This document shows, piece by piece, positions 1,725-20,084 of a DNA stretch of 64,000 bases. This stretch comes from Leptotrichia sp. oral taxon 212 (GTDB lineage Bacteria > Fusobacteriota > Fusobacteriia > Fusobacteriales > Leptotrichiaceae): positions 903,126 through 967,125 of the forward strand of contig NZ_CP012410.1 of assembly GCF_001274535.1 (NCBI RefSeq). The letters are read 5' to 3'. Both the position numbers and the translations under genes were made by a program. The notes under the pieces were generated by a model, which searched no databases, was not told the origin of the DNA, and saw nothing but the letters and a program-made list of their open reading frames with translations. Position 1 is the stretch's first letter. Each line of letters starts with the position of its first letter.

Positions 1725-2104
1725 TGGGTCTGTCTCAAAAAGAAAACTTAAAAATTAATGTGAAAAACTATATATGGTCTTTAAACTTAAAAATAAAATT
1801 ATAGAGTTTAGAGATCATTTTTTTGTATCACATAAAATTTGCATTTAGAACAAGAATATATATGAGTAATAAAATTTAAAAAGATTTCTATATATAAAAA
1901 AAACTTCAAAAAAAAGATTAATATAACGGAATTAAAAGGAATTGATATTATTTTTTCTTGCAAAGTTCTAAGGAATTTAGTAAAATGTAATTGATTATTC
2001 AAGATATATTTTGGTCATAACATAACAACATTTATATTTTTTTAGAAATCTTTGGTGTAAAATTATAGAGTGAAATGTTTGTAAAATTAAAGGAGAAGAA
2101 AATT
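1725..2104. other. AT-rich gap without a recognisable gene
   Basis: This stretch of about 380 bases between metI and the outer-membrane protein gene is very AT-rich. It begins with GGGTCTGTCTCAAAAAG, which resembles one arm of the palindromic terminators elsewhere in the window, but no matching second arm was found. A minus-strand reading frame (1808-2002) is low-complexity and has no credible start context. A promoter for the next gene must lie here, but no clear -35/-10 pair was seen. Confidence 0.4.
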
Positions 2105-3691
2105 ATGAAAAAATTACATATTTTAGGTACAATGATGTTATCAGCAGTTACTGGAATGGCTCAGGAAATTAAAATCAGCGGAGGTTGGGATTTTGACAGG
2201 ACATATAAAAATGATTTAACTAAAAAGGAGAAAGGTCTTTCAAATATCAATTATGATTATAAATTCCAAAATGGTCCCGTTGCTGGAATTGAGTGGTTGT
2301 TTGATAATCAGGGAAGACTTGAATTAGGAATTGGAGCAGAACATAAATTTTCTGTAAAATCTTCGACTTTAAAAAATAAAAAAGAAATGAAAATGTATGA
2401 AATAACTCCGATGTATCTGACAGGAAAAGTTAACTTAGTAACTTCTAAAAAGGGGAATGACCTTGTATATATTATTGGAAGAGCAGGCTATGCTTATGCT
2501 GAAGCCGGAAGAGATAATATAGAAGACCTGAATGATAAAAATTTCCGTGGTGGACTTTATTATGCAGGAGGTATAGGTACTCAAGTGGGTCCCATTTCAA
2601 TTGAAGCTTTGTATGAAAGATCAAATTTACGATATGATAAAGTAAATCTGGGAAACATAAATAGAAATAATATAAATACTTTAAATAATTTTAAAAAGAC
2701 TAAAGATAGTATAAATACAATTGGTATAAGAATAGGATACAGTATTGGAAATACAAGAAATTTACCGAAGAAAAAAAATAAAGCTGTACCTTTTGATCCT
2801 TTCAGAACAGATATTTTTGCTAAAACAGGAGATATGCAATATACTACAGATAAAGTTGAGAAAATAAAGTGGAATGGCGGAGAACTGAGATTAAATGTAG
2901 GATATAATTTCAAGAACAGATATAATGTCCAGCCAAAAGAATTTCTGGGAACGGGAATGAAAAATAATAAGTGGCAATCTGCAGAATCAGATTTTGATAT
3001 TAAAAAAATGCCTGTTGTTGGATTGGAATATTTATTTGACAATCAGGGAGCTGTTGAACTAGGACTGGGTGTAGAGCAAAAATTCCTTGATATTTCTGCA
3101 TTTTTTAATGATAAAAAGCAGAAACATGTTTTAAAAACTTATCCTGCTTATGCTACAACGAAACTTAATTTAGTGAATAATAACGGGAATAATCTTCTTT
3201 ATGTAGTTGGAAGAATAGGATATGTACATGGAGAAATAAAAGAAAAAAATTTCAATAAGGAAGATCTTCGTGGCGGACTTTATTATGCAGGAGGATTAGG
3301 TACAGAATTAGGGCCTGTTTCCATAGAAGCTCTTTATGAAAGTTCAAACTTTAAATATCAACCAAAGGACACTGTCAGTCCTATAAAAATTAAAGGTAAA
3401 ATTGACACATTCGGTATAAGGGTAGGATATAGAATAGGAAGCACTAAAAATAAACCAAAAATAAAGGAAGTCAGAACAGCTGCTTATACTTATCAGGATA
3501 TGCATGAAAAAGATAGAATAAATATAACTGATAATTTGATTGAAGAAAGCAGTAAGATTTCAACTGTCAGAAATAATGATTTAAAAGATATAAAAAAAGT
3601 TGAAGATAAAATAACAAAAGAAAATGATGAGGTTATATCTGAAAAAGATGCTATAGATATAATTGATAATTTAACATTCAATAGATTATAA
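2105..3691 (+). CDS. Outer-membrane beta-barrel protein with two tandem barrel repeats
   Basis: This is a predicted outer-membrane protein of 528 residues. The ATG at 2105 is preferred over the ATG at 2075 because AGGAGAAG lies just before it and because it begins directly with a signal peptide (MKKLHILGTMMLSAVTGMAQ). The mature part holds two similar units, about residues 56-217 and 301-445. Both contain the series GxEWLFDNQG or GLEYLFDNQG, then GGLYYAGG, then SIEALYE, and end in a GIRxGYxIG strand. Alternating polar and hydrophobic strands suggest beta-barrels. A charged tail of about 80 residues follows the second unit. The function is unknown. It could be one 2x barrel or two barrels in one chain. 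Confidence 0.7.
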   Translation: MKKLHILGTMMLSAVTGMAQEIKISGGWDFDRTYKNDLTKKEKGLSNINYDYKFQNGPVAGIEWLFDNQGRLELGIGAEHKFSVKSSTLKNKKEMKMYEITPMYLTGKVNLVTSKKGNDLVYIIGRAGYAYAEAGRDNIEDLNDKNFRGGLYYAGGIGTQVGPISIEALYERSNLRYDKVNLGNINRNNINTLNNFKKTKDSINTIGIRIGYSIGNTRNLPKKKNKAVPFDPFRTDIFAKTGDMQYTTDKVEKIKWNGGELRLNVGYNFKNRYNVQPKEFLGTGMKNNKWQSAESDFDIKKMPVVGLEYLFDNQGAVELGLGVEQKFLDISAFFNDKKQKHVLKTYPAYATTKLNLVNNNGNNLLYVVGRIGYVHGEIKEKNFNKEDLRGGLYYAGGLGTELGPVSIEALYESSNFKYQPKDTVSPIKIKGKIDTFGIRVGYRIGSTKNKPKIKEVRTAAYTYQDMHEKDRINITDNLIEESSKISTVRNNDLKDIKKVEDKITKENDEVISEKDAIDIIDNLTFNRL

Positions 3692-3757
3692 AATTTTTAC
3701 ATGAAAGAAATTAAAGAGTAATTTAAAATAAAAAGGAAAAATATTAAACATATGTAG

Positions 3758-3788
3758 AAAAAGTCCAAAAAATTTAAGACTTTTTTGA
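3758..3788 (+). terminator. Hairpin downstream of the barrel gene
   Basis: The arms AAAAAGTC (3758-3765) and GACTTTTT (3778-3785) pair perfectly around a 12-base A-rich loop and end in T residues. This fits an intrinsic terminator after the barrel gene and before the glycoside hydrolase gene. Confidence 0.6.
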
Positions 3789-3824
3789 CTTTTACAAATT
3801 CCGAATCTGAAAAGGAGAAAGAAA

Positions 3825-6800
3825 ATGAGAAGATTTATAATCTGGGAATTATTCTTAATTTTTATAAGTTTTTCAATAATGGCTGAAAGTGTAAGTAATC
3901 CGTCATCTTCAATAAAGGAAATAAAAAACAATAATGAAGTATTGCTGAAATGTTCAAATATTATAGGAGAAAGTCCACAGAAAATTGGAATAACTGAAAA
4001 TAATGTTAATAACATATTTTTAAAATGTTTAAATTCAGAAAATAACAATGTTAATATGCCTGAAATAAATAGGATTAATTCTAAAGATATATTACTCGAA
4101 TGTTCGAATACAAATGAAAATATGACAGGTGAAACAGGAGGAAATGAAAGTTCCGGAGAGAAAATATTGAAGTGTTCAAACATAGTTAAAATGCTTAATG
4201 CAAAAGAGTTATTTCAAACAGATAAAATCGGAAGTATTAACGGAATACAGATGAAATGTTCGAGTATGGTAAAAAATGTAACTAAAACTGAAATACCCTT
4301 ATCAGACAGTACTGGATCAAATGACATAGTATTAAAATGTTCAGACGTGTCTGAAAATCTTATAAAAAATGAAATAGAGATAAATAACGGAACAGTAAAA
4401 TCAAATGAAGTAATATTAAAATGTTCAAATATAGTTAAAGTTATAGAAGAAAATGAAGTTTTTTCAGATGACTCAGAAAATAATGTTGCCATAATATTAA
4501 GTTGTTCAAATACAACGGAAAAAACTAAAAATACTATTACAAATATAGGGCCTTCAATAGGAAATGTAGGTAAAGTGCCTATTGGTCCTATTATAGGTGG
4601 AGCAGTAGGAATTCCTGCTGTGGGAGCAATTATTGGAGGAATCGGACGTCGTGGTGGCGGTGGTGAAGATGGAGGATCCAGACCACAAAATGGCGGGGAT
4701 AAAAATGATAATAAAAAACCTAAAAAAGAAAAAAAAGATGATCCTGAAATACATAATGTCAGAGGAATTGGAATACAGCCTGTTAATCCTTTTTGGAGAA
4801 GTAATCTTCAGGAAGCTGAAGATTCTTATTCCAAAATAGCAAAAGTAGGTTTTCAATGGATAAGAATCACAGCTTCATGGCATAGAATCCAATCACAGAA
4901 AAATAAATCTTACGACTGGCAGGATATAGATGATGCTATTACTCTTGCAAAAAAATATAACTTAAAAGTTCTAATGCAGATAAGTGGTGCTCCTGAGTGG
5001 GCAACAGGAGCAGACAAACTTTCTGCTGCTGAAAAGAATGCATTAAATGCAAGAAAAATATGGGTAGCCTCATTTGCTCCGCTTCCACAGTATGATGATG
5101 AGTTTTCAAATTTTGTAAGTGCACTGGTAAAAAGATATGCCCGAGAGGGAGTAATTGATTATGAATTTTGGAATGAACCAGGGAATCCTGAATTCTGGCA
5201 TGATACAATTCAGAATCCGCGGCCAAATCCTGAGCGATATACGCAGTTGCTAAAAAAAGTATATACAGCAGCCCATAATGCCCATAATGATGTAAATGTT
5301 ATGGCTGGTGGAATGACCGTGGGAGTTACCAATAATTTAACAGGATATATCGGGCCTATGGAATTTTTAGAGAGAATGTATAAAGCCGGAGCAAAAGGAT
5401 ATTTTGATGGTTTATCACATCATCCTTATGGAATTTATGCCAGAGCTTTTCGGGATAACGGTTGGGCAAATATGATAGGTGACGTTGTGAAACCTGGTGC
5501 AGGAGAAAAAACACTATATCAGATAATGTCAGAACATGGCGACGGTAACAAAAAAATATGGCCGTCAGAAGTAGGATTGGATGCCGCTTACCCTGGCGTT
5601 GATGAAACAAAACAGGCTAATGTAATAAGTCAAATTTTAGGATGGTATCAAAAATCAGATATATTTGGTCCCCTTATTTTTTATCAGGCAAAAGACAGAA
5701 AACCTTATATTACTTCAGGAGTGCTGGACAGGGACAGTAATGGCGATGGATGGCTTGATGTAAATATTGATACAAATGGAGATGGTATACCTGATGCAAA
5801 CATAGATACAGATAACAATGGACGTCCTGATATACTGGATGCTGCAGATCCTGAAAATTATTTTGGAATTTGGAAATCGGATGGTACTGAAAAAAAAGCA
5901 GTGGACGTAATTCGGAAATTTATTAAAAATCAACCGTCACAACCTCCAATTACAAACGGATGTCAAAGCGCCACAGATGCTTCTGGTCAATGGAAGAGTG
6001 TAAAGTGCTGGGAATTTAATGAAAGAAATATTCCGGCTAACTGGCAAAGTAAGAGAATTATTAATCATTTGGGAAGTCATTTGACTTATCTGCCAAATAA
6101 CATCAGCCTGGATGGAGAACATGCCAAAATTACAACTCGTCGTCATTGTGTTGATAGAAGAGGTGATCCTCTAACTGATGGAAATGCGACTACAGGTGTA
6201 TGTCCTGCAGGTAAGGTTACACAATATTCAAGTGGTAGACTGGAGTCAGACAAACTTGTGGATGCCTCTAAGCCTTTCCGTGCAGAAATACGTGCAAAAA
6301 TGAACTGGAATAACCTGCAAGGAATGCGTACAGCTCTTTGGATGCAAAAACAGAGAAATGATGTGGATACGCCAATCTGTAAAAATCCAGGTGGCAGTGC
6401 CCCTTATGGTTCACTATTAATTCTGGAATGGTTTGCGAGTACTCCTGCTTATGCATGGCCTGCAACTAATATTAGCTGTTATTACAGTAATGTCAATCAT
6501 GAATGGACTCCGCGTGGCTTTACACACCGTCTGGAAAATATTGTTGGTGGACACAGTAAATCTCTAACAGGTGAGTGGCATGTCTGGACAATTGAATTTG
6601 ACGGAACGAAAGTACGTTATTATATGGACGGAAGGCTGATTCCTGTGAGTCATTATCGTATTCAGGATGCCAGAAGAGTTAGCGTAATTGATAACACACG
6701 ATATGATCAATATGGTAACTATCTTTCTACTATGCCGGATGAAGACTTTAGCAAACTAAATACTTCTTCCGCTTTAATTAAACAGGGATTTGAAAACGAT

Positions 6801-6926
6801 AAATGGCATTTCATTTTTAATGACTATGTGGAATGGGAACCTGGTTTGAATCCACCTTCTGAAAACTTGCCGTTCCCGGTTCAAACTACAGAAATTGACT
6901 ATGTACGTCTGTATCGTAAAAACTGA
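3825..6926 (+). CDS. Secreted mosaic glycoside hydrolase (Cys repeats, GH39-like, Asp-rich linker, GH16-like lectin fold)
   Basis: This 1033-residue exported protein has a signal peptide (residues 1-20), then eight copies of an (I/V)LKCSN-type motif spaced 24-28 residues apart. A Gly-rich and Lys-rich linker follows (about 245-305). Residues 312-700 form a clan-A (beta/alpha)8 hydrolase-like domain. FWNEPG supplies a probable acid/base Glu451, and WPSEVG a probable nucleophile Glu582. An Asp-rich, thrombospondin-3-like calcium segment (DRDSNGDGWLD, DTNGDGIPD, DTDNNGRPD; 635-672) sits inside that region. Residues 730-1033 resemble a GH16/concanavalin-A fold (EWHVWTIEFDG, DYVRLYR), but the ExDxxE catalytic motif is not visible, so this part may only bind glycan. 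The 3' half uses CGT for Arg and looks richer in G and C than the AGA-rich 5' part, suggesting fusion or transfer. The substrate is unknown. Confidence 0.7.
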   Translation: MRRFIIWELFLIFISFSIMAESVSNPSSSIKEIKNNNEVLLKCSNIIGESPQKIGITENNVNNIFLKCLNSENNNVNMPEINRINSKDILLECSNTNENMTGETGGNESSGEKILKCSNIVKMLNAKELFQTDKIGSINGIQMKCSSMVKNVTKTEIPLSDSTGSNDIVLKCSDVSENLIKNEIEINNGTVKSNEVILKCSNIVKVIEENEVFSDDSENNVAIILSCSNTTEKTKNTITNIGPSIGNVGKVPIGPIIGGAVGIPAVGAIIGGIGRRGGGGEDGGSRPQNGGDKNDNKKPKKEKKDDPEIHNVRGIGIQPVNPFWRSNLQEAEDSYSKIAKVGFQWIRITASWHRIQSQKNKSYDWQDIDDAITLAKKYNLKVLMQISGAPEWATGADKLSAAEKNALNARKIWVASFAPLPQYDDEFSNFVSALVKRYAREGVIDYEFWNEPGNPEFWHDTIQNPRPNPERYTQLLKKVYTAAHNAHNDVNVMAGGMTVGVTNNLTGYIGPMEFLERMYKAGAKGYFDGLSHHPYGIYARAFRDNGWANMIGDVVKPGAGEKTLYQIMSEHGDGNKKIWPSEVGLDAAYPGVDETKQANVISQILGWYQKSDIFGPLIFYQAKDRKPYITSGVLDRDSNGDGWLDVNIDTNGDGIPDANIDTDNNGRPDILDAADPENYFGIWKSDGTEKKAVDVIRKFIKNQPSQPPITNGCQSATDASGQWKSVKCWEFNERNIPANWQSKRIINHLGSHLTYLPNNISLDGEHAKITTRRHCVDRRGDPLTDGNATTGVCPAGKVTQYSSGRLESDKLVDASKPFRAEIRAKMNWNNLQGMRTALWMQKQRNDVDTPICKNPGGSAPYGSLLILEWFASTPAYAWPATNISCYYSNVNHEWTPRGFTHRLENIVGGHSKSLTGEWHVWTIEFDGTKVRYYMDGRLIPVSHYRIQDARRVSVIDNTRYDQYGNYLSTMPDEDFSKLNTSSALIKQGFENDKWHFIFNDYVEWEPGLNPPSENLPFPVQTTEIDYVRLYRKN
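3942..4512 (+). repeat. Eightfold LKCSN-type coding repeat
   Basis: Eight related motifs with one cysteine each occur at residues 43, 68, 93, 117, 145, 172, 200 and 227 of the hydrolase protein. Most read LKCSN, with variants LKCLN, LECSN, MKCSS, LKCSD and LSCSN. The spacing is regular (24-28 residues), while the sequence between the motifs is variable and rich in Asn and Glu. At DNA level the element AAATGTTCAAATA recurs with small changes. Confidence 0.8.
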
Positions 6927-7017
6927 TAGTGGTATTGAATAGACATTTAATGTAATTATATATAACAGATACTGAAAATTATTTAAAGCTAAGAAACTAT
7001 TACAAAGAAAAAAGGGG

Positions 7018-7992: not shown

Positions 7993-8688
7993 ATGACAGA
8001 GTTAGAAAAGTCAAAAGAAATTATACAGTTCATTGCAAATGCTGAAAAAACAACACCAGTTGAGCTGTATACAGATGAAGAAATAGTTAATTCATATGCT
8101 TGTAAAGTTATTGGTAAGAATGGATTGAAAGTTATATTTGGTAACTGGGAGGAAATTAAAAAAATTATATCTGAAAACAGTTTAAAAAATTATTATTTGA
8201 AAAATGACAGAAGAAATTCAGGAGTGCCTATGCTGAATATAAAAAACATAAATGCCAGAATAGAACCTGGAGCAATAATAAGAGATAAAGTCATTATTGG
8301 AGACAAAGCTGTTATCATGATGGGAGCAGTTATAAATATAGGTGCAGAAATAGGGGAAGCAACTATGATTGATATGAATGCTGTTCTCGGAGGAAGAGCA
8401 AAAGTAGGAAAAAACTGTCATATTGGTGCAGGAACAGTACTTGCAGGAGTTATTGAACCACCTTCAGCTGATCCTGTAGTAATTGAAGATAATGTAGTTA
8501 TTGGTGCAAATGCAGTAGTTCTTGAAGGAGTAAGAATCGGTAAAGGATCAGTAATTGCAGCAGGAGCTGTAGTAACTGAAAATGTCCCAGAAAATGTTGT
8601 TGTTGCAGGAATGCCGGCTAAAATAATAAAAAATGTTGATGATAAAACTGCTTCAAAAACTGAACTGGTGGAAGAGTTAAGAAAATAA
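7993..8688 (+). CDS. dapH: Tetrahydrodipicolinate N-acetyltransferase
   Basis: DapH acetylates tetrahydrodipicolinate with acetyl-CoA, which indicates the acetylase branch of lysine synthesis. The 231-residue protein starts with the helical domain of this family. It then runs as a left-handed beta-helix of hexapeptide repeats from about residue 85 ([24 protein letters not shown]) to 205, ending with [11 protein letters not shown]. It is preceded by GGAGG and follows dapB directly. Length and motif order match the family. Confidence 0.93.
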
Positions 8689-8718
8689 TTAAATATATAG
8701 ACAAATTTAGGAGGAAAA

Positions 8719-9897
8719 ATGAAAAAATTATTATTAGTAGCAGCGATTTTATATGGAAGTGCTCTATCATTTGGGGATGCAAAGGCAGATTATGAAAATG
8801 CCAGAAAATTGGTACAAAATAACAAAATAAGTGATGCTGTAAAAGTTTTAGAAAAAATTTCAACTTCAGGAGACAAAGAATATGTAACAAAAGCTAACTT
8901 TGATTTGGGACTTTATTATTTCCAGAATAAAGATAATGCAAAAGCAAAAAAGTATTTATCTGAAGTATGGAATAACGGTTCTGCAGCAACACCTGAAGCA
9001 TTGGAAGCCGCAAAATGGTTACATGCAATTGCAAGTCAAAGTAAAAATACTGCTGAAGCAGAAAAATACATAGACTGGGCAGACAAAAATACGCAAGGAA
9101 AAGATGCAGATATAGTTTCAAGTCTGATTATGTTTTACTTTGAAAATAAAATGGATAGTAAAGCACAAAATAGATATAACACTGCTATAAAATCAACAGA
9201 TAAGAATTATGTTGCAGAAATAAATTATAATTTAGGACAATATTTTATTGAAAAAAATAATATACCAAAAGCAAAAAAATATTTACAGGATTCTTACAAA
9301 GCATCTCCTAATGCTGTAGTGCCTGCAGGATTTTTACTTTCACAGATAGCTTTATCTGAAAAAGATAATGCAACTGCTGAAAAATATCTGTTAGAAATGA
9401 GTAAAGCAACTCAGGACAAAAACTCTGAAATATTAGGTATGTTAGGATCTTATTATATAGGAGTAAATAATTTGACAAAAGCTGAAGATTATCTCAAAAA
9501 GTCTGTAACTGCAGACAGTAAGAACAGTGAATCATTATTAATGCTTTTAACAATGTATGAGTCTAAAAAAGATAATGCAAATATAAATTCAATATATAAT
9601 AAATTGAAAACAATTGTTCCTAAAGGATTAAATAAGGAATTAGGAATAACTTATGCAGGAATTGGGAATGCAGAACTATCTGAAAAATATTTCAAAAAAT
9701 CAATAAATGAAGATAAAGATAATGAATCTAAAATGTTCTTAGGACAGTTATACTACCTGACAGGAAAACAGGCTGACGGAATAAACTTAGTAAAAGAAGC
9801 AGTTAGTGCAAAAGTAAAAGGTGCAGATGAAGTATTGAAACAAATGCAATCTGGAGGAAGTAAAGCACCTGCAAAACAACCTTCAACTAAAAAATAA
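8719..9897 (+). CDS. Exported TPR-repeat protein
   Basis: This is a 392-residue protein with a signal peptide (MKKLLLVAAILYGSALSFGDA). After it, helical tetratricopeptide-like repeats of about 34-36 residues run almost to the end, with recurring motifs such as NLGQYFIEKNNIPKAKKYL and MLGSYYIGVNNLTKAEDYL. The C-terminus is Lys- and Pro-rich. It is probably periplasmic and a scaffold for protein contacts. GGAGG precedes the start 30 bases after dapH, so it may be cotranscribed with the lysine genes. No specific partner can be named. Confidence 0.75.
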   Translation: MKKLLLVAAILYGSALSFGDAKADYENARKLVQNNKISDAVKVLEKISTSGDKEYVTKANFDLGLYYFQNKDNAKAKKYLSEVWNNGSAATPEALEAAKWLHAIASQSKNTAEAEKYIDWADKNTQGKDADIVSSLIMFYFENKMDSKAQNRYNTAIKSTDKNYVAEINYNLGQYFIEKNNIPKAKKYLQDSYKASPNAVVPAGFLLSQIALSEKDNATAEKYLLEMSKATQDKNSEILGMLGSYYIGVNNLTKAEDYLKKSVTADSKNSESLLMLLTMYESKKDNANINSIYNKLKTIVPKGLNKELGITYAGIGNAELSEKYFKKSINEDKDNESKMFLGQLYYLTGKQADGINLVKEAVSAKVKGADEVLKQMQSGGSKAPAKQPSTKK

Positions 9898-9921
9898 TAA
9901 TTTGTAATAGAAATAATTTAT

Positions 9922-9950
9922 GAGAGCATTAATAAAAAATGCTCTTTTTA
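9922..9950 (+). terminator. Terminator after the dapB-dapH-TPR group
   Basis: The arms GAGAGCATT and AATGCTCTT pair around an A/T loop and are followed by a T run. The hairpin closes the dapB-dapH-TPR unit before the recA promoter. Confidence 0.85.
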
Positions 9951-9964
9951 TTTCATTAAAATTT

Positions 9965-9973
9965 TGATATAAT
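9965..9973 (+). promoter_or_regulatory. Extended -10 promoter candidate for recA
   Basis: TGATATAAT gives a perfect TATAAT (9968-9973) with the TG of an extended -10 element. No strong -35 is visible. It is the only clear promoter element in the 210 bases before recA. No LexA-like operator was recognised beside it. Confidence 0.5.
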
Positions 9974-10110
9974 ATATGGTAGACAGGGGGTGAAAATTGA
10001 GGATCCATTTAATAGTATAAGCTCTTATAAAAAAGAAAAATATTATAAATAGAGAGATGGATAAATAAAAGGGGAAAAAATAAAATGAAAATGTATAAGG
10101 AGAATAAAGA

Positions 10111-11292
10111 ATGGCGAAAAAGAAAGCAGTAGATGAAAAAGATGACAAGGCTTTGAGTGAAAGAGCAAAAGTGCTGGATTTGGCAATGAAACAGATACAT
10201 AAAGAATTTGGAGAAGGTTCTATCATGAAACTGGGAGAAAACCAGAAGATGAATATAAAGGTCATTTCAACAGGAAGTATGAATCTGGATATGGCATTAG
10301 GGCTTGGAGGAGTTCCAAGAGGGAGGATTATTGAAATATATGGAGCGGAATCTTCAGGAAAAACAACGCTTGCACTGCACATAATAGCGGAAGCACAGAA
10401 AGAAGGGGGAGTGGCTGCGTTTATCGATGCTGAACATGCTCTTGATCCTGTGTATGCAAAGGCTCTAGGAGTAAACATTGATGAACTTCTCATATCTCAG
10501 CCTGATACAGGGGAACAGGCTCTTGAGATAGCTGATATGCTTGTAAGAAGTGGTGCTATGGATGTAATAGTAGTAGATTCAGTTGCTGCACTTGTCCCTA
10601 AGGCTGAAATAGAAGGGGAAATGGGGGATCAGCAGATGGGACTTCAGGCAAGACTTATGTCAAAAGCCCTTAGAAAGCTGACAGGAAGCATTTCAAAGTC
10701 AAATACGGTTATGATTTTTATAAATCAGATAAGAGAAAAAATAGGAGGATTTTCATTTACACCGGGACCGCAGACAACTACTTCCGGCGGAAGGGCACTG
10801 AAATTTTTCTCAACTGTAAGAATGGAAGTAAAAAGAGTAGGTTCAGTTAAACAGGGAGATGAAGTAATAGGGAATGAAGTTACTGTAAAAGTTACTAAAA
10901 ATAAGGTTGCACCTCCATTTAAGGAAGCAAGATTTAATGTAATGTACGGAACAGGAATTTCAAGAATTGGTGAAGTTCTTGATGTTGCGCTGGAATTAGG
11001 AATAGCTTCTAAAAGTGGTGCATGGTTCAGCTATGGAGAAGAAAGACTTGGTCAGGGAAGAGTCAATGTGGAAAATATGCTGAAGGAAAATAGGGAATTA
11101 TATGAAAGAATAGAAAAAGATGTACTGAAAGCTATAAGACCTGATCTTGAAAATACTGAAGCGGAAGATGTGACAGAAGAAGTTGCAGAAACTGAAGAAA
11201 AAACTGTAAAGTCTACAAGAAAAAAAGCAAAGTCCGCTCCAAAAGAAGATGAGGAAATAGAGTTGGAAGTTGAAGAAATGGAAAATGAATAA
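10111..11292 (+). CDS. recA: Recombinase RecA
   Basis: RecA forms filaments on single-stranded DNA and drives strand exchange and the SOS response. The sequence has Walker [10 protein letters not shown], Walker [12 protein letters not shown], the L2 region with [10 protein letters not shown], and [15 protein letters not shown] near the N-terminus. It has 393 residues. The excess over the usual ~350 is a C-terminal acidic and Lys-rich tail (from about residue 345) that ends [12 protein letters not shown]. The ATG is preceded by AAGGAGAATAAAGA. Its stop overlaps the recX start (TAATG), so the two are coupled. Confidence 0.97.
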
Positions 11293-11873
11293 TGATAATT
11301 GAAAAAATTCAGAAAAATAAGCTGTATCTTTCAACAGATGAAATAATGGATGTAACTCCATTAATAAGACAGAAATACAGTTTAAAAGTAAATGATAATA
11401 TTGAGAGCCTCTATGATGAAATTTCTTATGAGGCTTCTCTTGAAAAAGGAATATTTTTACTTTCGTTGAGGGACAGGACAAAAAAGGAATTACAGCAAAA
11501 ACTGAATGAAAAATACAGAAATAGCAGGATGGTTGAAAAATCAGTCTTAAAACTTGTAGAACTCGGATATATTAACGACAAGGAATATGCTGTATCCTAT
11601 ATAATGAGCAGAAAATATGGAAAACAGAGAATAGCCTATAATCTTATGCAGAAGGGGATAGAGAGGGAAACAATTGAGGAAGCTTATTTTTCTATTGAAG
11701 AAGAATATGAAAAAAATATTGAAGATGAAAAGCTTGAAAAAGCAATAGAAAAAAATATAAAAAAGGAAGAAAATAAGTTGATTCAATATCTTGTAAGGCA
11801 AGGATTCAGTCTAAATAAAGTTCTTTCAAAATATAAGGAATTTAAAGAAAATAATGATCTGGAAGGAGAATAG
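11292..11873 (+). CDS. recX: Recombination regulatory protein RecX
   Basis: RecX modulates RecA filaments. The 193-residue protein has the helical RecX pattern. LSLRDRTKKELQQKL (about residue 57) and VLKLVELGYINDKEYAVSYI (about 85) are typical repeats, followed by an RIAYNLMQKGI segment. The start overlaps the recA stop by one base. The C-terminal part is rich in Lys and Glu. The assignment rests both on these repeats and on its place after recA. Confidence 0.88.
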   Translation: MIIEKIQKNKLYLSTDEIMDVTPLIRQKYSLKVNDNIESLYDEISYEASLEKGIFLLSLRDRTKKELQQKLNEKYRNSRMVEKSVLKLVELGYINDKEYAVSYIMSRKYGKQRIAYNLMQKGIERETIEEAYFSIEEEYEKNIEDEKLEKAIEKNIKKEENKLIQYLVRQGFSLNKVLSKYKEFKENNDLEGE

Positions 11874-11875
11874 CA

Positions 11876-12625
11876 TTGAGAACAATATTTTATCATTTTA
11901 TACTGGCCGGAACATTTATATATGGATTGTTTTTCAGATATCCCTATCTATTATTTGTCAAGGGAGAAAAGGCATATAAATTTGTCTGTAAAATAGCAAA
12001 AAACTGGGGTAAAAACTTAATTTGGGCTTCAGGAAGTAAAGTTAAGGTTATTTATAAGAATAACAGTGAAAATGAAATGAAAAAAGTGAAAGAGACAAGG
12101 GAACCGGTAATTTTGATTTCAAACCATCAGAGTAATGTGGATATACCTGCACTTTTGGGATATCTCCCTTTAGATTTTTCTTTTATAGCTAAGAAAGAAA
12201 TGAAAAAATGGCCTCTGATAGGACGTTGGATGAGAAGATTTGACTGCATATTTCTGGATAGAAAAAATGCACGTCAGGGAATGAAGGATATGAAGGAAGC
12301 TATTGATAAAATAAAAAAAGGGCATTCATATGTCATATTTCCGGAAGGAAGTAGAAGTAAGGATGGTAAAATTGGAGAATTTAAAAAAGGAAGCTTTAAA
12401 CTTGCGACAGATACAAAGGCAAGAATATTTCCAATAGCACTGGTAGGAACTTACGAGATTCAGAGCAGAAAAAGCCTAAAAGTGACTCCAAATAAAAATG
12501 TAAAGATAATAGTGGATAATCCCATAAATTTAGAAGATTTATCTAAGGAAGATCAGAAGAGAGTACATGAAATAGTAAATGAAATTGTGAAAAATAATTT
12601 TGCGGAATACAATAATAAAAATTAA
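11876..12625 (+). CDS. plsC: 1-acyl-sn-glycerol-3-phosphate acyltransferase
   Basis: PlsC adds the second acyl chain to make phosphatidic acid at the inner membrane. The protein has an N-terminal hydrophobic segment, the catalytic NHQSNVD (HX4D) motif near residue 83, FLDRKNAR, and the FPEGSRSKDG substrate motif near 160. The start is TTG, two bases after the recX stop, with GGAAGGAG just before it. This suggests an operon with recA-recX and the rdgB gene that follows. Confidence 0.88.
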   Translation: MRTIFYHFILAGTFIYGLFFRYPYLLFVKGEKAYKFVCKIAKNWGKNLIWASGSKVKVIYKNNSENEMKKVKETREPVILISNHQSNVDIPALLGYLPLDFSFIAKKEMKKWPLIGRWMRRFDCIFLDRKNARQGMKDMKEAIDKIKKGHSYVIFPEGSRSKDGKIGEFKKGSFKLATDTKARIFPIALVGTYEIQSRKSLKVTPNKNVKIIVDNPINLEDLSKEDQKRVHEIVNEIVKNNFAEYNNKN

Positions 12626-12636
12626 GAGGTAAATAG

Positions 12637-13226
12637 ATGAAAATAATTTTGGCGACAAAAAATAGAGGAAAGATAAAAGATTTTGAAAAACTTACAGATG
12701 GAATGGATATAGAGGTGCTGTCAATTTTAGATAATATTGATTTTCCCGACGTAGTGGAAGATGGTAAGACATTTGAAGAAAATTCTGCTAAAAAAGCATT
12801 GGAAATAGCAAAATATACTGGAATTGTAACTGTTTCAGATGATTCAGGATTGTGCGTTGATATCTTAAATGGAGAACCAGGAATATATTCTGCAAGATAT
12901 TCCGGAGAAGATGGAAATGATGAAAAAATATTGAAAAACTTCTGGAAAATTTGTCAGATATTGAAAAAAATGATAGAAAAGCTCATTTTGTTTCAGTAGT
13001 AAGTATTGCTTTTCCTGATGGAACTGTAAAATCATTCAGGGGAGAAACCCAGGGAGAAATTCTCTTTGAAAAGGAAGGAAATAATGGATTCGGTTATGAT
13101 TCTTTGTTTTATTCATATGATTTGGGAAAATCTTTTGGAGTTGCAACTATTGATGAGAAGAAAAGTGTGAGCCATAGAGGACGGGCATTTGAAAAGTTAA
13201 AGAAAGAAGTGCTTGAGAAATTATAA
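12637..13226 (+). CDS. rdgB: XTP/dITP pyrophosphatase, interrupted by an apparent frameshift
   Basis: This family hydrolyses non-canonical purine nucleotides (XTP, dITP) to clean the nucleotide pool. The first frame (12637-12999) carries the start motif ILATKNRGKIKDF and the DDSGLCVDIL and GIYSARYSGE segments. The second frame (to 13226) carries NGFGYDSLF and SHRGRAFEKL. The frames join if one A is added to the six-A run at 12923-12928: the reading then becomes NDEKNIEKLLENLSDIEK, as expected. All family motifs are otherwise present, so the break is one base, either a sequencing error, a slippage site or a recent mutation. Confidence 0.85.
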
Positions 13227-13259
13227 AAAAGAGGCTATCTTAGAAAAAATGTATATAAT

Positions 13260-13416
13260 AAAAACTATATTTATTCATTTACTAAAATTTTACTCATATA
13301 AAACAGTCATTCATTAAGAAAAAGACAAAATTAGCCTAAAGGTTGCTGTCTTTTTCTTAATTCATTTTCTGTTTCTTATTGTAAAATTTCAAATAATTCA
13401 AAAATATAGTTTTTTT
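13260..13416. repeat. Long imperfect palindrome, copy A
   Basis: The two arms of this 157-base element are nearly full-length complements. The outer ends are AAAAACTATATTTATTC and its partner around 13399-13416, and the inner ends are AAGAAAAAGACA and TGTCTTTTTCTT around a short loop. It is clearly related to the element at 20137-20297. The homology continues leftward to about 13227 (AGGCTATCTTAG versus AGGCTATATTAG). It lies between convergent rdgB and yciI and may also end transcription. Confidence 0.8.
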
Positions 13417-13459
13417 AATTTGCAATTTTATCTGAAAATGTCAATCTTTATTAACGATA

Positions 13460-13756
13460 TTATTTCACAAAACTTTCAAACTCTTCTGCATATTTTGCAG
13501 GAGTAAATTCAATTATTCTAAAATCAACGAGGTCATTTTTATAGAAAGGGTCTTCTTTCAGGATAGATTCCAGCTCTTCCTTAGTGATATTATTAGCTAT
13601 TATAATCCCACCTTCCGGAGGTGTCTGTCTACCTGAAACTATAAATTTTCCAGATTTGTAGTATGTTTCCAGAAAGTCAAGATGTTCCGGACGGAACTTT
13701 GAAACTTCTTCCAATGATTTTTTATAAGTCAGTACTGCTATAAAAATATTTTTCAT
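13460..13756 (-). CDS. YciI-family protein
   Basis: This is a 98-residue ferredoxin-fold protein of the YciI/DGPF-like family. Recognisable parts are an N-terminal strand and helix with RPEHLDFLETYYKSGKF, the turn SGRQTPPEGGIIIA, and FYKNDLVDFRIIEFTPA near the end. Conserved His and Asp residues suggest a small catalytic or binding site, but no reaction is established for this branch. GGAAGG precedes the start on the minus strand. It is transcribed in the same direction as the upstream fabV, but the distance suggests separate control. Confidence 0.8.
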   Translation of the reverse strand: MKNIFIAVLTYKKSLEEVSKFRPEHLDFLETYYKSGKFIVSGRQTPPEGGIIIANNITKEELESILKEDPFYKNDLVDFRIIEFTPAKYAEEFESFVK

Positions 13757-13850
13757 AATTTTACCTTCCTTTCAGATTTAATAATTTATATAATTTCAGT
13801 TTTTCTGTACAAAAAATGCTTGCAAATTAACACAAGCAATTTTTTATTTA

Positions 13851-15044
13851 TTACGGCTGTAATTTCGCCAGTTCTTCTAAATCAATATCAGCATCATAAT
13901 CAACATTATCGAAATCAAATCCGTTCAGTTGCATGAATTCTTCCCTTGCACCTTTGTAATCGCTGATTTCCTTAAAGTTTTCAGGCGTAACTTTATCCCA
14001 CAATGCTTCAACTTCAGACTGAACATCTTCCCTCATTTCCCAGTTATCAGGTCTAAGTCTTCTTTCATCATCTATTTCAGGTTTTCCACCATAAATCATA
14101 TCTTTAAGAAGTCTATGCTTCTGCTCAATAGTACCTTCATGAATGCCTTTTTCCTTCATTACTCTATAAAGTAATGCTGCGTATAAGGGGAAAATAGGTA
14201 TAACGGCACTGGCTTTTGTCATAAGAGCCTTACTTAATGAAACATATGCTTCTCCGTTATATTTTTTCTTAAGGAAATCATTCAGTACATCAGAAGTATG
14301 TTCCAAATCTCTTTTAGCGGCACCTATTGTACCGTCTTTATAAATTCCATAAGTAACTTTTGGTCCTAAATAAGAATATGCTACAGTTTTAAATCCATCA
14401 GTCAGTACCCCGGCTTCATCAAGAGCATCAACCCAAAGCTTCCAGTCTTCTCCTCCCATTACTTTTACTGTACTGTGAATTTCTTCAGGAGTGGCAACTC
14501 CCATAACAGTTTCTTCCATAGCTTCCTTTTCAAGATTGATGGAAGGTCCAACAATTTCTTCTTTTGTGGATTTTAGTGCAGATCTGTAAGTAACTCCATC
14601 TTTAGGATCAGTTCTGACTGCACTTGCAAGACTGTAAATAAGCAAGTCTATTTTTCCACCAAATTCTTCTTTTATATATTTTATGACATCAGCTTTCATT
14701 TCGTCTGAAAAAGCATCTCCCATAAAATTTTTAGAAATAAGCCCTTCTTCTTTTGCTGATTCATTGAAGGCAATGGTATTCCACCAACCTGCAGATCCTA
14801 CTCTTTTCCCTTCAACACCTTTTTCAAATGCAACTCCAATAGTGTCAGCTCCTGCACCAAATGCCAATGAAACTCTTGAAGCAAGTCCATAACCGGATGA
14901 TGATCCTATTATTAAAACTTTTTTTGGTCCTGTATATTTATCCTGTGATTTGATATAATCAATTTGTCTCTTTACAAATTCCTTAGCACCAAGTGGATGG
15001 TTTGTTAAAGCTAAGCTACCTTTTAATCTTGGTTTTATAACCAT
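13851..15044 (-). CDS. fabV: Enoyl-[acyl-carrier-protein]/trans-2-enoyl-CoA reductase FabV
   Basis: FabV reduces enoyl thioesters with NAD(P)H in fatty-acid elongation and is an alternative to FabI. The 397-residue protein begins IKPRLKGSLALTNHP, has the nucleotide site GSSSGYGLASR (about 47-57), and contains the LIYSLASAVRTDP segment. The region SKALMTKASAVIPIFPLY carries catalytic Lys and Tyr side chains. Length is typical. GGAGGG precedes the minus-strand start. Resistance to triclosan-type inhibitors is known for the family but not shown here. Confidence 0.93.
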   Translation of the reverse strand: MVIKPRLKGSLALTNHPLGAKEFVKRQIDYIKSQDKYTGPKKVLIIGSSSGYGLASRVSLAFGAGADTIGVAFEKGVEGKRVGSAGWWNTIAFNESAKEEGLISKNFMGDAFSDEMKADVIKYIKEEFGGKIDLLIYSLASAVRTDPKDGVTYRSALKSTKEEIVGPSINLEKEAMEETVMGVATPEEIHSTVKVMGGEDWKLWVDALDEAGVLTDGFKTVAYSYLGPKVTYGIYKDGTIGAAKRDLEHTSDVLNDFLKKKYNGEAYVSLSKALMTKASAVIPIFPLYAALLYRVMKEKGIHEGTIEQKHRLLKDMIYGGKPEIDDERRLRPDNWEMREDVQSEVEALWDKVTPENFKEISDYKGAREEFMQLNGFDFDNVDYDADIDLEELAKLQP

Positions 15045-18599: not shown

Positions 18600-20084
18600 A
18601 TGGCAATAGAATTACAGAAAAAGTATGATTTATTTATTGACGGGAAATGGGTACCTTCTTCTGATGGGGGTACATTAAAGGCATACAGTCCTTCTACAGG
18701 GGAAGAACTGGCACTTATTTCAGAAGCGACAGCTGAAGATGTTGATTTAGCAGTAAAAGCTGCAGAAAAAGCATTTGAAAGCTGGAAAAAAACATCTCCG
18801 ATTGAACGACAGGATATCCTGTTAAAAATTGCTGACATAATTGATAAAAATAAAGATTTTTTAGCGGCAGTGGAAAGCATGGACAATGGAAAACCGATAA
18901 GAGAAACTTCTTTTGCTGATATTCCACTGGGAGCGGATCATTTCAGATATTTTGCAGGAGCAATAAGAAGTGAAGAAGGAACTTCAAAAATGCTTGATGA
19001 AAATACATTAAACCTTATATTGAGAGAACCTATAGGGGTAGTTGGACAAATTATACCATGGAATTTCCCATTCCTTATGGCTGCATGGAAACTGGCTCCG
19101 GCTCTTGCGGCAGGATGTACAGTGGTGTTAAAGCCTTCAAGTCACACATCACTTTCAGTACTTGAACTGATGAGACTTATAGCAGATGTAGTTCCAAAAG
19201 GTGTAATTAATGTTGTAACAGGAAGCGGTTCAAAATCAGGAAATTATATGTTGAAACATAATGGATTTAAGAAACTCGCATTTACAGGATCAACTGCAGT
19301 AGGACAGGATGTATATTCAGCAGCATGTTCATTAATGATTCCAGCAACATTGGAGCTTGGAGGAAAATCTGCAAATATATTCTTTGAAGACTGTGACTTA
19401 GATATGGCAATGGATGGAGCACAGCTAGGAATACTATTTAATCAGGGACAGGTATGTTCTGCAGGTTCACGTATATTTGTTCAGGATACAATTTATGATA
19501 AATTTGTTGAAAGACTAAAAAATGTATTTGAAAAGGTTAAAGTAGGAAATCCTCTGGATCCTTCCACACAAATGGGATCTTTAATATATGAAAGACATTT
19601 GAAAGATGTACTTAATTATGTAGAAATAGGTAAAAAAGAAGGAGCACGTCTAGTTACAGGAGGAACAAGAATAGAAGATGGAGACCTTAAAAATGGATTC
19701 TTTGTAAGACCTACAATTTTTGCAGATGTAACAAATGATATGAGAATTGCACAGGAAGAAATTTTTGGCCCGGTAGTAGTAGTGGAAAAATTCCATAGTG
19801 AAGAAGAAGTTATAAAAGCTGCAAATGACAGTATATATGGTCTTGGAGGAGGAGTGTTCACTCGTGACCTTAACTGTGCAATCCGTGTTTCAAGAGGAAT
19901 TGAAACAGGACGTGTGTGGGTAAATACATATAACCAGTTCCCTGCTGGAGCACCTTTCGGAGGATATAAACAGTCAGGAATAGGACGTGAAACTCACAAA
20001 GTTATATTGGAACACTATACTCAAATGAAAAATATTCTTATTAATCTAAATGAAAAACCATCTGGATTCTACGAAACAGAATAG
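18600..20084 (+). CDS. NAD(P)-dependent aldehyde dehydrogenase
   Basis: This 494-residue cytosolic enzyme oxidises an aldehyde to the acid. It has the cofactor segment PWNFPFLMAAWK, the FTGSTAVGQ glycine motif, the general base in LELGGKSANIFF, and the catalytic cysteine in NQGQVCSAGSR. The late motifs EIFGPVVVV and PFGGYKQSGIGRE are intact. Length is that of the classical ALDH family. It appears to be a single-gene unit between a terminator and the palindromic repeat, with its own promoter. The aldehyde cannot be named from sequence; acetaldehyde is one option. Confidence 0.9.
   Translation: MAIELQKKYDLFIDGKWVPSSDGGTLKAYSPSTGEELALISEATAEDVDLAVKAAEKAFESWKKTSPIERQDILLKIADIIDKNKDFLAAVESMDNGKPIRETSFADIPLGADHFRYFAGAIRSEEGTSKMLDENTLNLILREPIGVVGQIIPWNFPFLMAAWKLAPALAAGCTVVLKPSSHTSLSVLELMRLIADVVPKGVINVVTGSGSKSGNYMLKHNGFKKLAFTGSTAVGQDVYSAACSLMIPATLELGGKSANIFFEDCDLDMAMDGAQLGILFNQGQVCSAGSRIFVQDTIYDKFVERLKNVFEKVKVGNPLDPSTQMGSLIYERHLKDVLNYVEIGKKEGARLVTGGTRIEDGDLKNGFFVRPTIFADVTNDMRIAQEEIFGPVVVVEKFHSEEEVIKAANDSIYGLGGGVFTRDLNCAIRVSRGIETGRVWVNTYNQFPAGAPFGGYKQSGIGRETHKVILEHYTQMKNILINLNEKPSGFYETE

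What the first reader, a model, noticed from the sequence alone, without database searches (positions are those of the whole stretch)
3825..6926. Mosaic hydrolase with cysteine-repeat head and two carbohydrate domains
One chain has eight regular single-Cys repeats, a GH39-like domain, an Asp-rich calcium segment and a GH16-like fold without its catalytic motif. Codon use shifts within the gene (AGA-rich 5' part; CGT-rich 3' half), which fits fusion with acquired DNA. The Cys ladder is unusual and could cross-link to itself or the surface.
Basis: partly seen in the sequence, partly recalled or inferred. Interest (0 to 1): 0.55.

Follow-up and report, generated by a model that had tools for sequence, protein, structure and literature searches.

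The report
Shared cysteine-ladder sugar-cutting surface enzyme
Leptotrichia and a related bacterium share a two-gene cassette that makes an outer-membrane protein and a secreted sugar-cutting enzyme whose front end carries eight evenly spaced, never-changing cysteines, which is odd because their other exported proteins seem to hold very few.

Summary
The same full-length architecture occurs in 10 of 33 Leptotrichiaceae genomes. All eight head Cys are invariant in 10 of 10 while the linkers drift. The barrel's best structural match is PslG (Z 27), with both catalytic Glu conserved, so it is probably a working retaining endo-glycosidase. The codon shift is real (CGT in the C-terminal domain) and shared by all ten, so any fusion is old. 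The gene always lies beside a double-barrel outer-membrane protein found full-length only in the same ten genomes; the pair sits at several genomic addresses, is far more alike than the hosts, and the GH+C half has been swapped between species apart from the Cys head. The host has no hit to DsbA, VKOR or Thioredoxin_4, and other exported proteins sampled are nearly Cys-free, so the ladder is an anomaly. Best guess: a surface-held, matrix-remodelling GH39 enzyme whose ladder forms disulfide-linked assemblies outside the cell; the ladder's role is inferred.

The parts
3825..6926 (+). Cys-ladder GH39 protein, 1033 aa
   Evidence: ORF; 10 full-length orthologues counting itself
3825..3884 (+). signal peptide, residues 1-20
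   Evidence: basic start plus hydrophobic stretch ending SIMA-E, read by eye; AF2 helix 2-20
3885..4544 (+). Cys-ladder head, residues 21-240: eight copies of hhL[KE]C[SL]N at Cys 43, 68, 93, 117, 145, 172, 200, 227 separated by Asn/Ser/Glu-rich variable linkers
   Evidence: a strand predicted at each of the 8 Cys, at low confidence
4569..4679 (+). Gly-rich hydrophobic segment, residues 249-285
   Evidence: sequence; partly invariant in 10 of 10
4680..4748 (+). Lys/Asp-rich linker, residues 286-308; breakpoint zone of recombination
   Evidence: G012-G013 identity jumps from 66-77% to 97% here
4749..5930 (+). GH39-fold catalytic barrel, residues 309-702; no Cys
   Evidence: PF00150 1.7e-7; PslG best fold match, Z 27.0
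5175..5177 (+). Glu451, predicted acid/base (WNEP)
   Evidence: invariant in alignments A5 and A7; matches the PslG NEP Glu in the alignment
5568..5570 (+). Glu582, predicted nucleophile (W-x-[ST]-E)
   Evidence: invariant in A5, nearly invariant in A7; role by analogy with PslG Glu276 (passages of PMC11912335)
5733..5831 (+). Asp-rich insert, residues 637-669: three D-x-[DN]-x-[DN]-G-x-x-D units, probable Ca2+ sites, near the end of the barrel
   Evidence: 10 of 10; absent from the 5 distant GH relatives in A5
5958..6923 (+). C-terminal domain, residues 712-1033: GH16-like, no catalytic motif, six conserved Cys, CGT-rich
2075..3691 (+). partner gene: outer-membrane protein with two OMP_b-brl stretches, no Cys
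   Evidence: PF13505 2.3e-10, 2 stretches; full-length only in the ten genomes that carry the target
1931..6927 (+). extent of the shared two-gene cassette (approximate)
   Evidence: blastn homology to 9 relatives begins at 1931-1947 and ends at 6915-6933

Best explanation
This is a secreted GH39-type retaining endo-glycosidase (PslG-like) held at the cell surface or in the biofilm matrix. The barrel cuts a beta-linked polysaccharide; the C-terminal GH16-like domain has lost the catalytic motif and probably binds the polysaccharide; the Asp-rich insert probably binds Ca2+. The N-terminal head is a string of eight short beta-strand motifs, each with one Cys, on flexible linkers. Outside the cell, where oxygen or thiol exchange is available, these Cys most likely form disulfides between chains or to other thiol proteins, making a multivalent anchor. 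The double-barrel outer-membrane protein is its functional partner and travels with it. Shown: architecture, Cys conservation, catalytic residues, GH39 fold (predicted model), fixed pairing with the OMP, horizontal spread and module swapping. Inferred: activity, substrate, surface location, disulfide cross-linking, interaction with the OMP.
For: GH39 fold: PslG 5bx9 Foldseek E 4.2e-13; VIA Z 27.0, rmsd 2.8 over 274 residues, with GH39 5jvk and xylosidases next. E447, N450, E451, H533 and Y535 invariant across 17 sequences and E582 nearly so. Eight head Cys invariant in 10 of 10 although the linkers vary and two orthologues lack 15 residues between Cys5 and Cys6. Exported-like proteins other than the target: 16 Cys in 8632 aa, 20 of 27 with none (counted from the list); the OMP has 0 Cys in 9 of 9 examined. 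OMP adjacent in 10 of 10; full-length OMP in 10 of 10 carriers and 0 of 23 non-carriers.
Against: The window's genome has no hit to PF01323 DSBA, PF07884 VKOR or PF13462 Thioredoxin_4, so no known enzyme to make disulfides was found. The head model has low confidence (pLDDT about 25-48 over most of it), so strands and exposure of the Cys are unproven; the alternation I-x-L-x-C suggests Cys may face a core rather than solvent. The C-domain model failed (mean pLDDT 31). Surface location and OMP partnership rest on gene linkage alone, and the target has been exchanged without the OMP. Pfam's GH39 model was not among the hits.
Confidence: 0.5

Rival explanations
1. The head is an ordered repeat structure (beta-solenoid or amyloid-like stack) in which the Cys are buried core residues that need not be oxidised; it is a stalk or oligomerisation unit, and disulfides are incidental.
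For: Period 24-28 suits a solenoid rung; motif alternation hydrophobic-x-L-x-C; a strand at each Cys in the model; no Dsb-type enzyme found.
Against: Spacing is free (12 to 34 residues between neighbouring Cys across orthologues); linkers are Asn/Ser/Glu-rich and poorly conserved; other core positions tolerate change (I/V/L/M/F) whereas Cys never does.
Confidence: 0.25
2. The Cys motifs are docking segments for the partner OMP, or attachment sites for a modification (lipid, sugar, metal), rather than cross-links.
For: OMP and target are always paired; the OMP has no Cys in 9 of 9 examined, so a disulfide to it is excluded; short conserved motifs on variable linkers look like linear motifs.
Against: Target genes have been exchanged without the OMP (G010-G016: target 96.6%, OMP 81.6% nt), so a tightly co-evolved interface is not required; no modifying enzyme lies in the cassette.
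Confidence: 0.15
3. The protein is an ordinary diffusible hydrolase for nutrition; the head is only a spacer.
For: Secreted GH39-type barrel with a binding-type domain; GH39 enzymes include xylosidases.
Against: Invariant Cys in an otherwise drifting spacer, where other exported proteins sampled are nearly Cys-free.
Confidence: 0.1

Closest known systems
PslG of Pseudomonas aeruginosa (GH39 endo-glycosidase acting on the Psl matrix polysaccharide)
   Same: Barrel fold (Z 27.0), WNEP acid/base Glu and nucleophile Glu, exported enzyme (PMC11912335, passages)
   Different: 18% identity; a Cys head, Asp-rich insert or OMP partner is not known to me for PslG (recalled, not tested); no Psl-type synthesis genes were looked for here
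GH39 beta-xylosidases (XynB1 2bs9, 1px8) and 5jvk
   Same: Barrel fold, Z 23-25
   Different: 16-22% identity; other accessory domains (recalled)
GH16 laminarinases (3azx, 6jhj) for the C-terminal domain
   Same: Short collinear blocks...RAEIRAKM..., EWHVWxIEFDGT..YYMDG, EIDYVRLY
   Different: Below family cut-offs; catalytic E-x-D-x(x)-E lost in 10 of 10
CdeC, cysteine-rich spore protein of Clostridioides difficile (named in PMC12453122, passages)
   Same: Cys-rich extracytoplasmic protein in an anaerobe
   Different: No sequence comparison made; spore protein, not an enzyme

Membership tests
GH39 | (beta/alpha)8 barrel whose nearest solved folds are GH39 | tested here: met
   Top Foldseek and VIA rows are PslG and GH39 enzymes; other clan GH-A folds follow at Z about 22
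GH39 | Acid/base Glu in NEP and nucleophile Glu | tested here: met
   E451 and E582, conserved in A5 and A7
GH39 | Match to the Pfam GH39 model (PF01229, number recalled) | tested here: not met
   Not among hits up to E 1; PF00150 and PF02449 were. So GH39-like by fold; formal family assignment stays open
GH39 | Retaining activity on a beta-glycoside | not testable with these tools
   needs an assay
GH16 (C-terminal domain) | Catalytic E-x-D-x(x)-E | tested here: not met
   No match in 10 of 10
GH16 (C-terminal domain) | beta-jelly-roll fold | tested here: inconclusive
   Sub-threshold profile hits; AF2 mean pLDDT 31
Disulfide cross-linked surface protein | Cys oxidised between chains | not testable with these tools
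   Cys conservation only
Disulfide cross-linked surface protein | Host has a known disulfide catalyst | tested here: inconclusive
   No hit to three families in the window's genome; DsbB and AhpC-type SdbA not searched

The most novel reading that the evidence does not exclude
The head is a new kind of extracellular thiol-ladder domain: evenly spaced single-Cys beta-strand motifs that cross-link outside the cell without the usual disulfide machinery (to each other, to the matrix, or to host thiol proteins such as mucins), spread between genera as part of a two-gene enzyme-plus-barrel cassette whose catalytic half is exchanged independently.
Probability: 0.22. Interest if true: 0.8.

Novelty: new variant of a known kind. 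Interest (0 to 1): 0.52.

Why it matters
Obligate anaerobes are reported to keep cysteine out of exported proteins (PMC12453122, passages), so an exported protein with fourteen invariant Cys, eight of them in a ladder, makes a direct test of how such organisms use extracellular thiols. It also gives a concrete case of modular exchange between oral-type species in which the enzyme half and the head of one secreted protein move separately, and a candidate biofilm-matrix enzyme in Leptotrichia. No paper describing this protein was seen in the listings of searches made.

Tried and rejected
A second Cys-ladder gene in the genome: the weak DNA match L002 lies in SMC and is taken as chance; the LKCSN-type pattern clusters only in this gene. 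Viral origin: no relatives of the head or the C domain among viral contigs, no match in the phage collection. Donor of the CGT-rich C domain: none among plasmids, nor of any part in the phylum outside the family (0 of 65 genomes); the single genome-contig scan found only L. hongkongensis. High expression as the cause of CGT use is not excluded: an aldehyde dehydrogenase-like ORF at 18600-20084 has CGN 7 of 18, while recA has 0 of 18. DNA-level tandem duplication as the source of the head: only a 12-base 1.9-copy repeat at the gene's start was found. Homology of the C domain to the genome's own active-looking GH16 (L024): hhalign probability 4.8, one 22-column block. C-domain fold: the job failed on a 2-sequence alignment. 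In the head tree, holding G012+G013 together was not rejected at 0.05 (p 0.057); incongruence rests on GH and C (p 0.0015 and 0.0017 against G013+G015), with clades chosen after the identities were seen. Several branches of these trees are weak, and SMC puts G013 with G006 and G008, next to G015. Fold rows only test residues 310-628.

Full report
In the head, eight Cys stand 24-28 residues apart; none of 200,000 random placements with the two end Cys fixed was as even, and each Cys sits in a motif like hydrophobic-hydrophobic-L-[KE]-C-[SL]-N.

Relatives settle whether this is chance. A full-length search of 33 Leptotrichiaceae genomes finds the gene in 10: the window's genome and 9 of 13 genomes of a sister genus (g6), at 79-83% identity over the whole length; nothing more appears in 98 phylum genomes. 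One named relative is Leptotrichia hongkongensis, whose record has the same length as the g6 genome G007. In the alignment all eight head Cys are kept in 10 of 10, although only 72 of 220 head columns are invariant, linker lengths vary, and two orthologues lack 15 residues between Cys5 and Cys6. The GH domain has no Cys and the C domain six, in 10 of 10.

The catalytic part is a clan GH-A barrel. Pfam gives PF00150 (1.7e-7) and PF02449 (5.3e-5); matches in plasmids cover the barrel region only, at 21-33% identity, in 12 of 12 records found. An AlphaFold2 model from the window protein, L. hongkongensis and 15 viral-contig pieces is confident over most of residues 311-626 and poor elsewhere (mean pLDDT 51.6). 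Its best solved match is PslG (Foldseek 4.2e-13; VIA Z 27.0, rmsd 2.8, 274 residues), then GH39 enzymes. PslG's acid/base Glu165 and nucleophile Glu276 (passages of PMC11912335) should correspond to E451 and E582, conserved across distant relatives; for E451 the alignment shows it, for E582 it is by position in the barrel. The barrel is therefore predicted active. The Asp-rich stretch is three D-x-[DN]-x-[DN]-G-x-x-D units inserted near the end of the barrel, in 10 of 10 orthologues and in none of the five distant relatives compared.

The C-terminal domain matches GH16 laminarinases in short collinear blocks at sub-threshold scores and lacks E-x-D-x(x)-E in 10 of 10. Its model failed, so the fold is likely but not shown.

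Codon use does shift. Among Arg codons, CGN makes 2 of 6 in the head, 6 of 16 in the barrel and 12 of 21 in the C domain, against 44 of 587 in the other window ORFs of 200 aa or more (Fisher 1.8e-8 for the C domain, 0.07 for the head). In the ten genomes CGT alone takes 8-12 of 17-21 C-domain Arg codons, largely at the same positions. The shift is thus old and shared, not a recent event in this genome.

The gene travels with a partner. The ORF at 2075-3691 has two outer-membrane barrel stretches. A full-length relative lies next to the target on the same strand in 10 of 10 carriers, upstream in 8 and downstream in 2. The 23 non-carriers have only shorter partial matches, at most about 50% identical, and one has none. 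Outside the pair the neighbours fall into at least four arrangements, and DNA similarity to the window starts at 1931-1947 and stops at 6915-6933.

The pair has moved between lineages. SMC of the window's genome is 55-60% identical to that of seven g6 carriers, with 36-42% identity at fourfold sites, while the OMP is 80-84% and the GH domain 88-91% identical, with about 60-70% at fourfold sites. The window genome's SMC is nearer to genera that lack the gene (64% to G020 and G021). Within g6 the gene is a mosaic: G012 and G013 share 99% of GH and C protein with 89-95% fourfold identity, but 72% of the head, 84.5% of the OMP and 62% of SMC; identity jumps at the linker, about residues 285-310. 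Trees put G012 with G013 for GH and C, and G013 with G015 for OMP and head. G010 and G016 share 96.6% of the target's DNA but 81.6% of the OMP's. SMC of G007 and G010 was broken up in the search and not used.

The chemistry is odd. The window's genome has no hit to DSBA, VKOR or Thioredoxin_4, while 8, 3 and 9 of 14 control genomes do; DsbB and SdbA-type proteins were not searched. Of 37 exported-like ORFs picked by a simple rule in the window and 11 fetched loci, 10 are the target; the other 27 hold 16 Cys in 8632 aa after residue 25 and 20 have none, against 296 in 54,005 aa for ORFs without the export rule (the rule is rough, lets in some likely cytosolic proteins, and misses the OMP of the other genomes). 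Obligate anaerobes are reported to tend to exclude cysteine from exported proteins (PMC12453122, passages). Fourteen invariant Cys in this one protein are therefore against the trend.

My reading: a matrix- or surface-bound GH39-type endo-glycosidase whose Cys ladder makes extracellular disulfide assemblies. The enzyme part is well supported; the ladder's role is inference, with a buried-Cys repeat structure and an OMP-docking role as live rivals.

Noticed in passing
L018 and L020 (G010, G012), oriented coordinates about 8300-13900: The cassette is permuted: target first, OMP second, and the usual OMP-target intergenic region with its ribosome-binding site and ATG now leads into an ABC-transporter ATPase-like ORF.
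   Followed up: partly
L024 (G000:C1:2304434-2304994): A separate 334-aa GH16 protein with an intact-looking EIDIFE motif lies next to a nucleotide-sugar dehydratase-like ORF; it may belong to exopolysaccharide turnover.
   Followed up: no
G000:C1:252129-252734 and similar places in other Leptotrichiaceae: A shorter relative of the double-barrel OMP (open frame about 360-390 aa, 44-50% identical over parts) occurs in many family genomes and could be the ancestor of the cassette's OMP.
   Followed up: no
window 18600-20084: An aldehyde dehydrogenase-like ORF also has raised CGN use (7 of 18 Arg) for this window.
   Followed up: no
window 3757-3794: AAAAGTC...GACTTTTTTGACTTTT could form a terminator-like hairpin between the OMP and the target, with a similar stretch after the OMP in L018 and L020 (by eye); it may set the ratio of the two products.
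   Followed up: no
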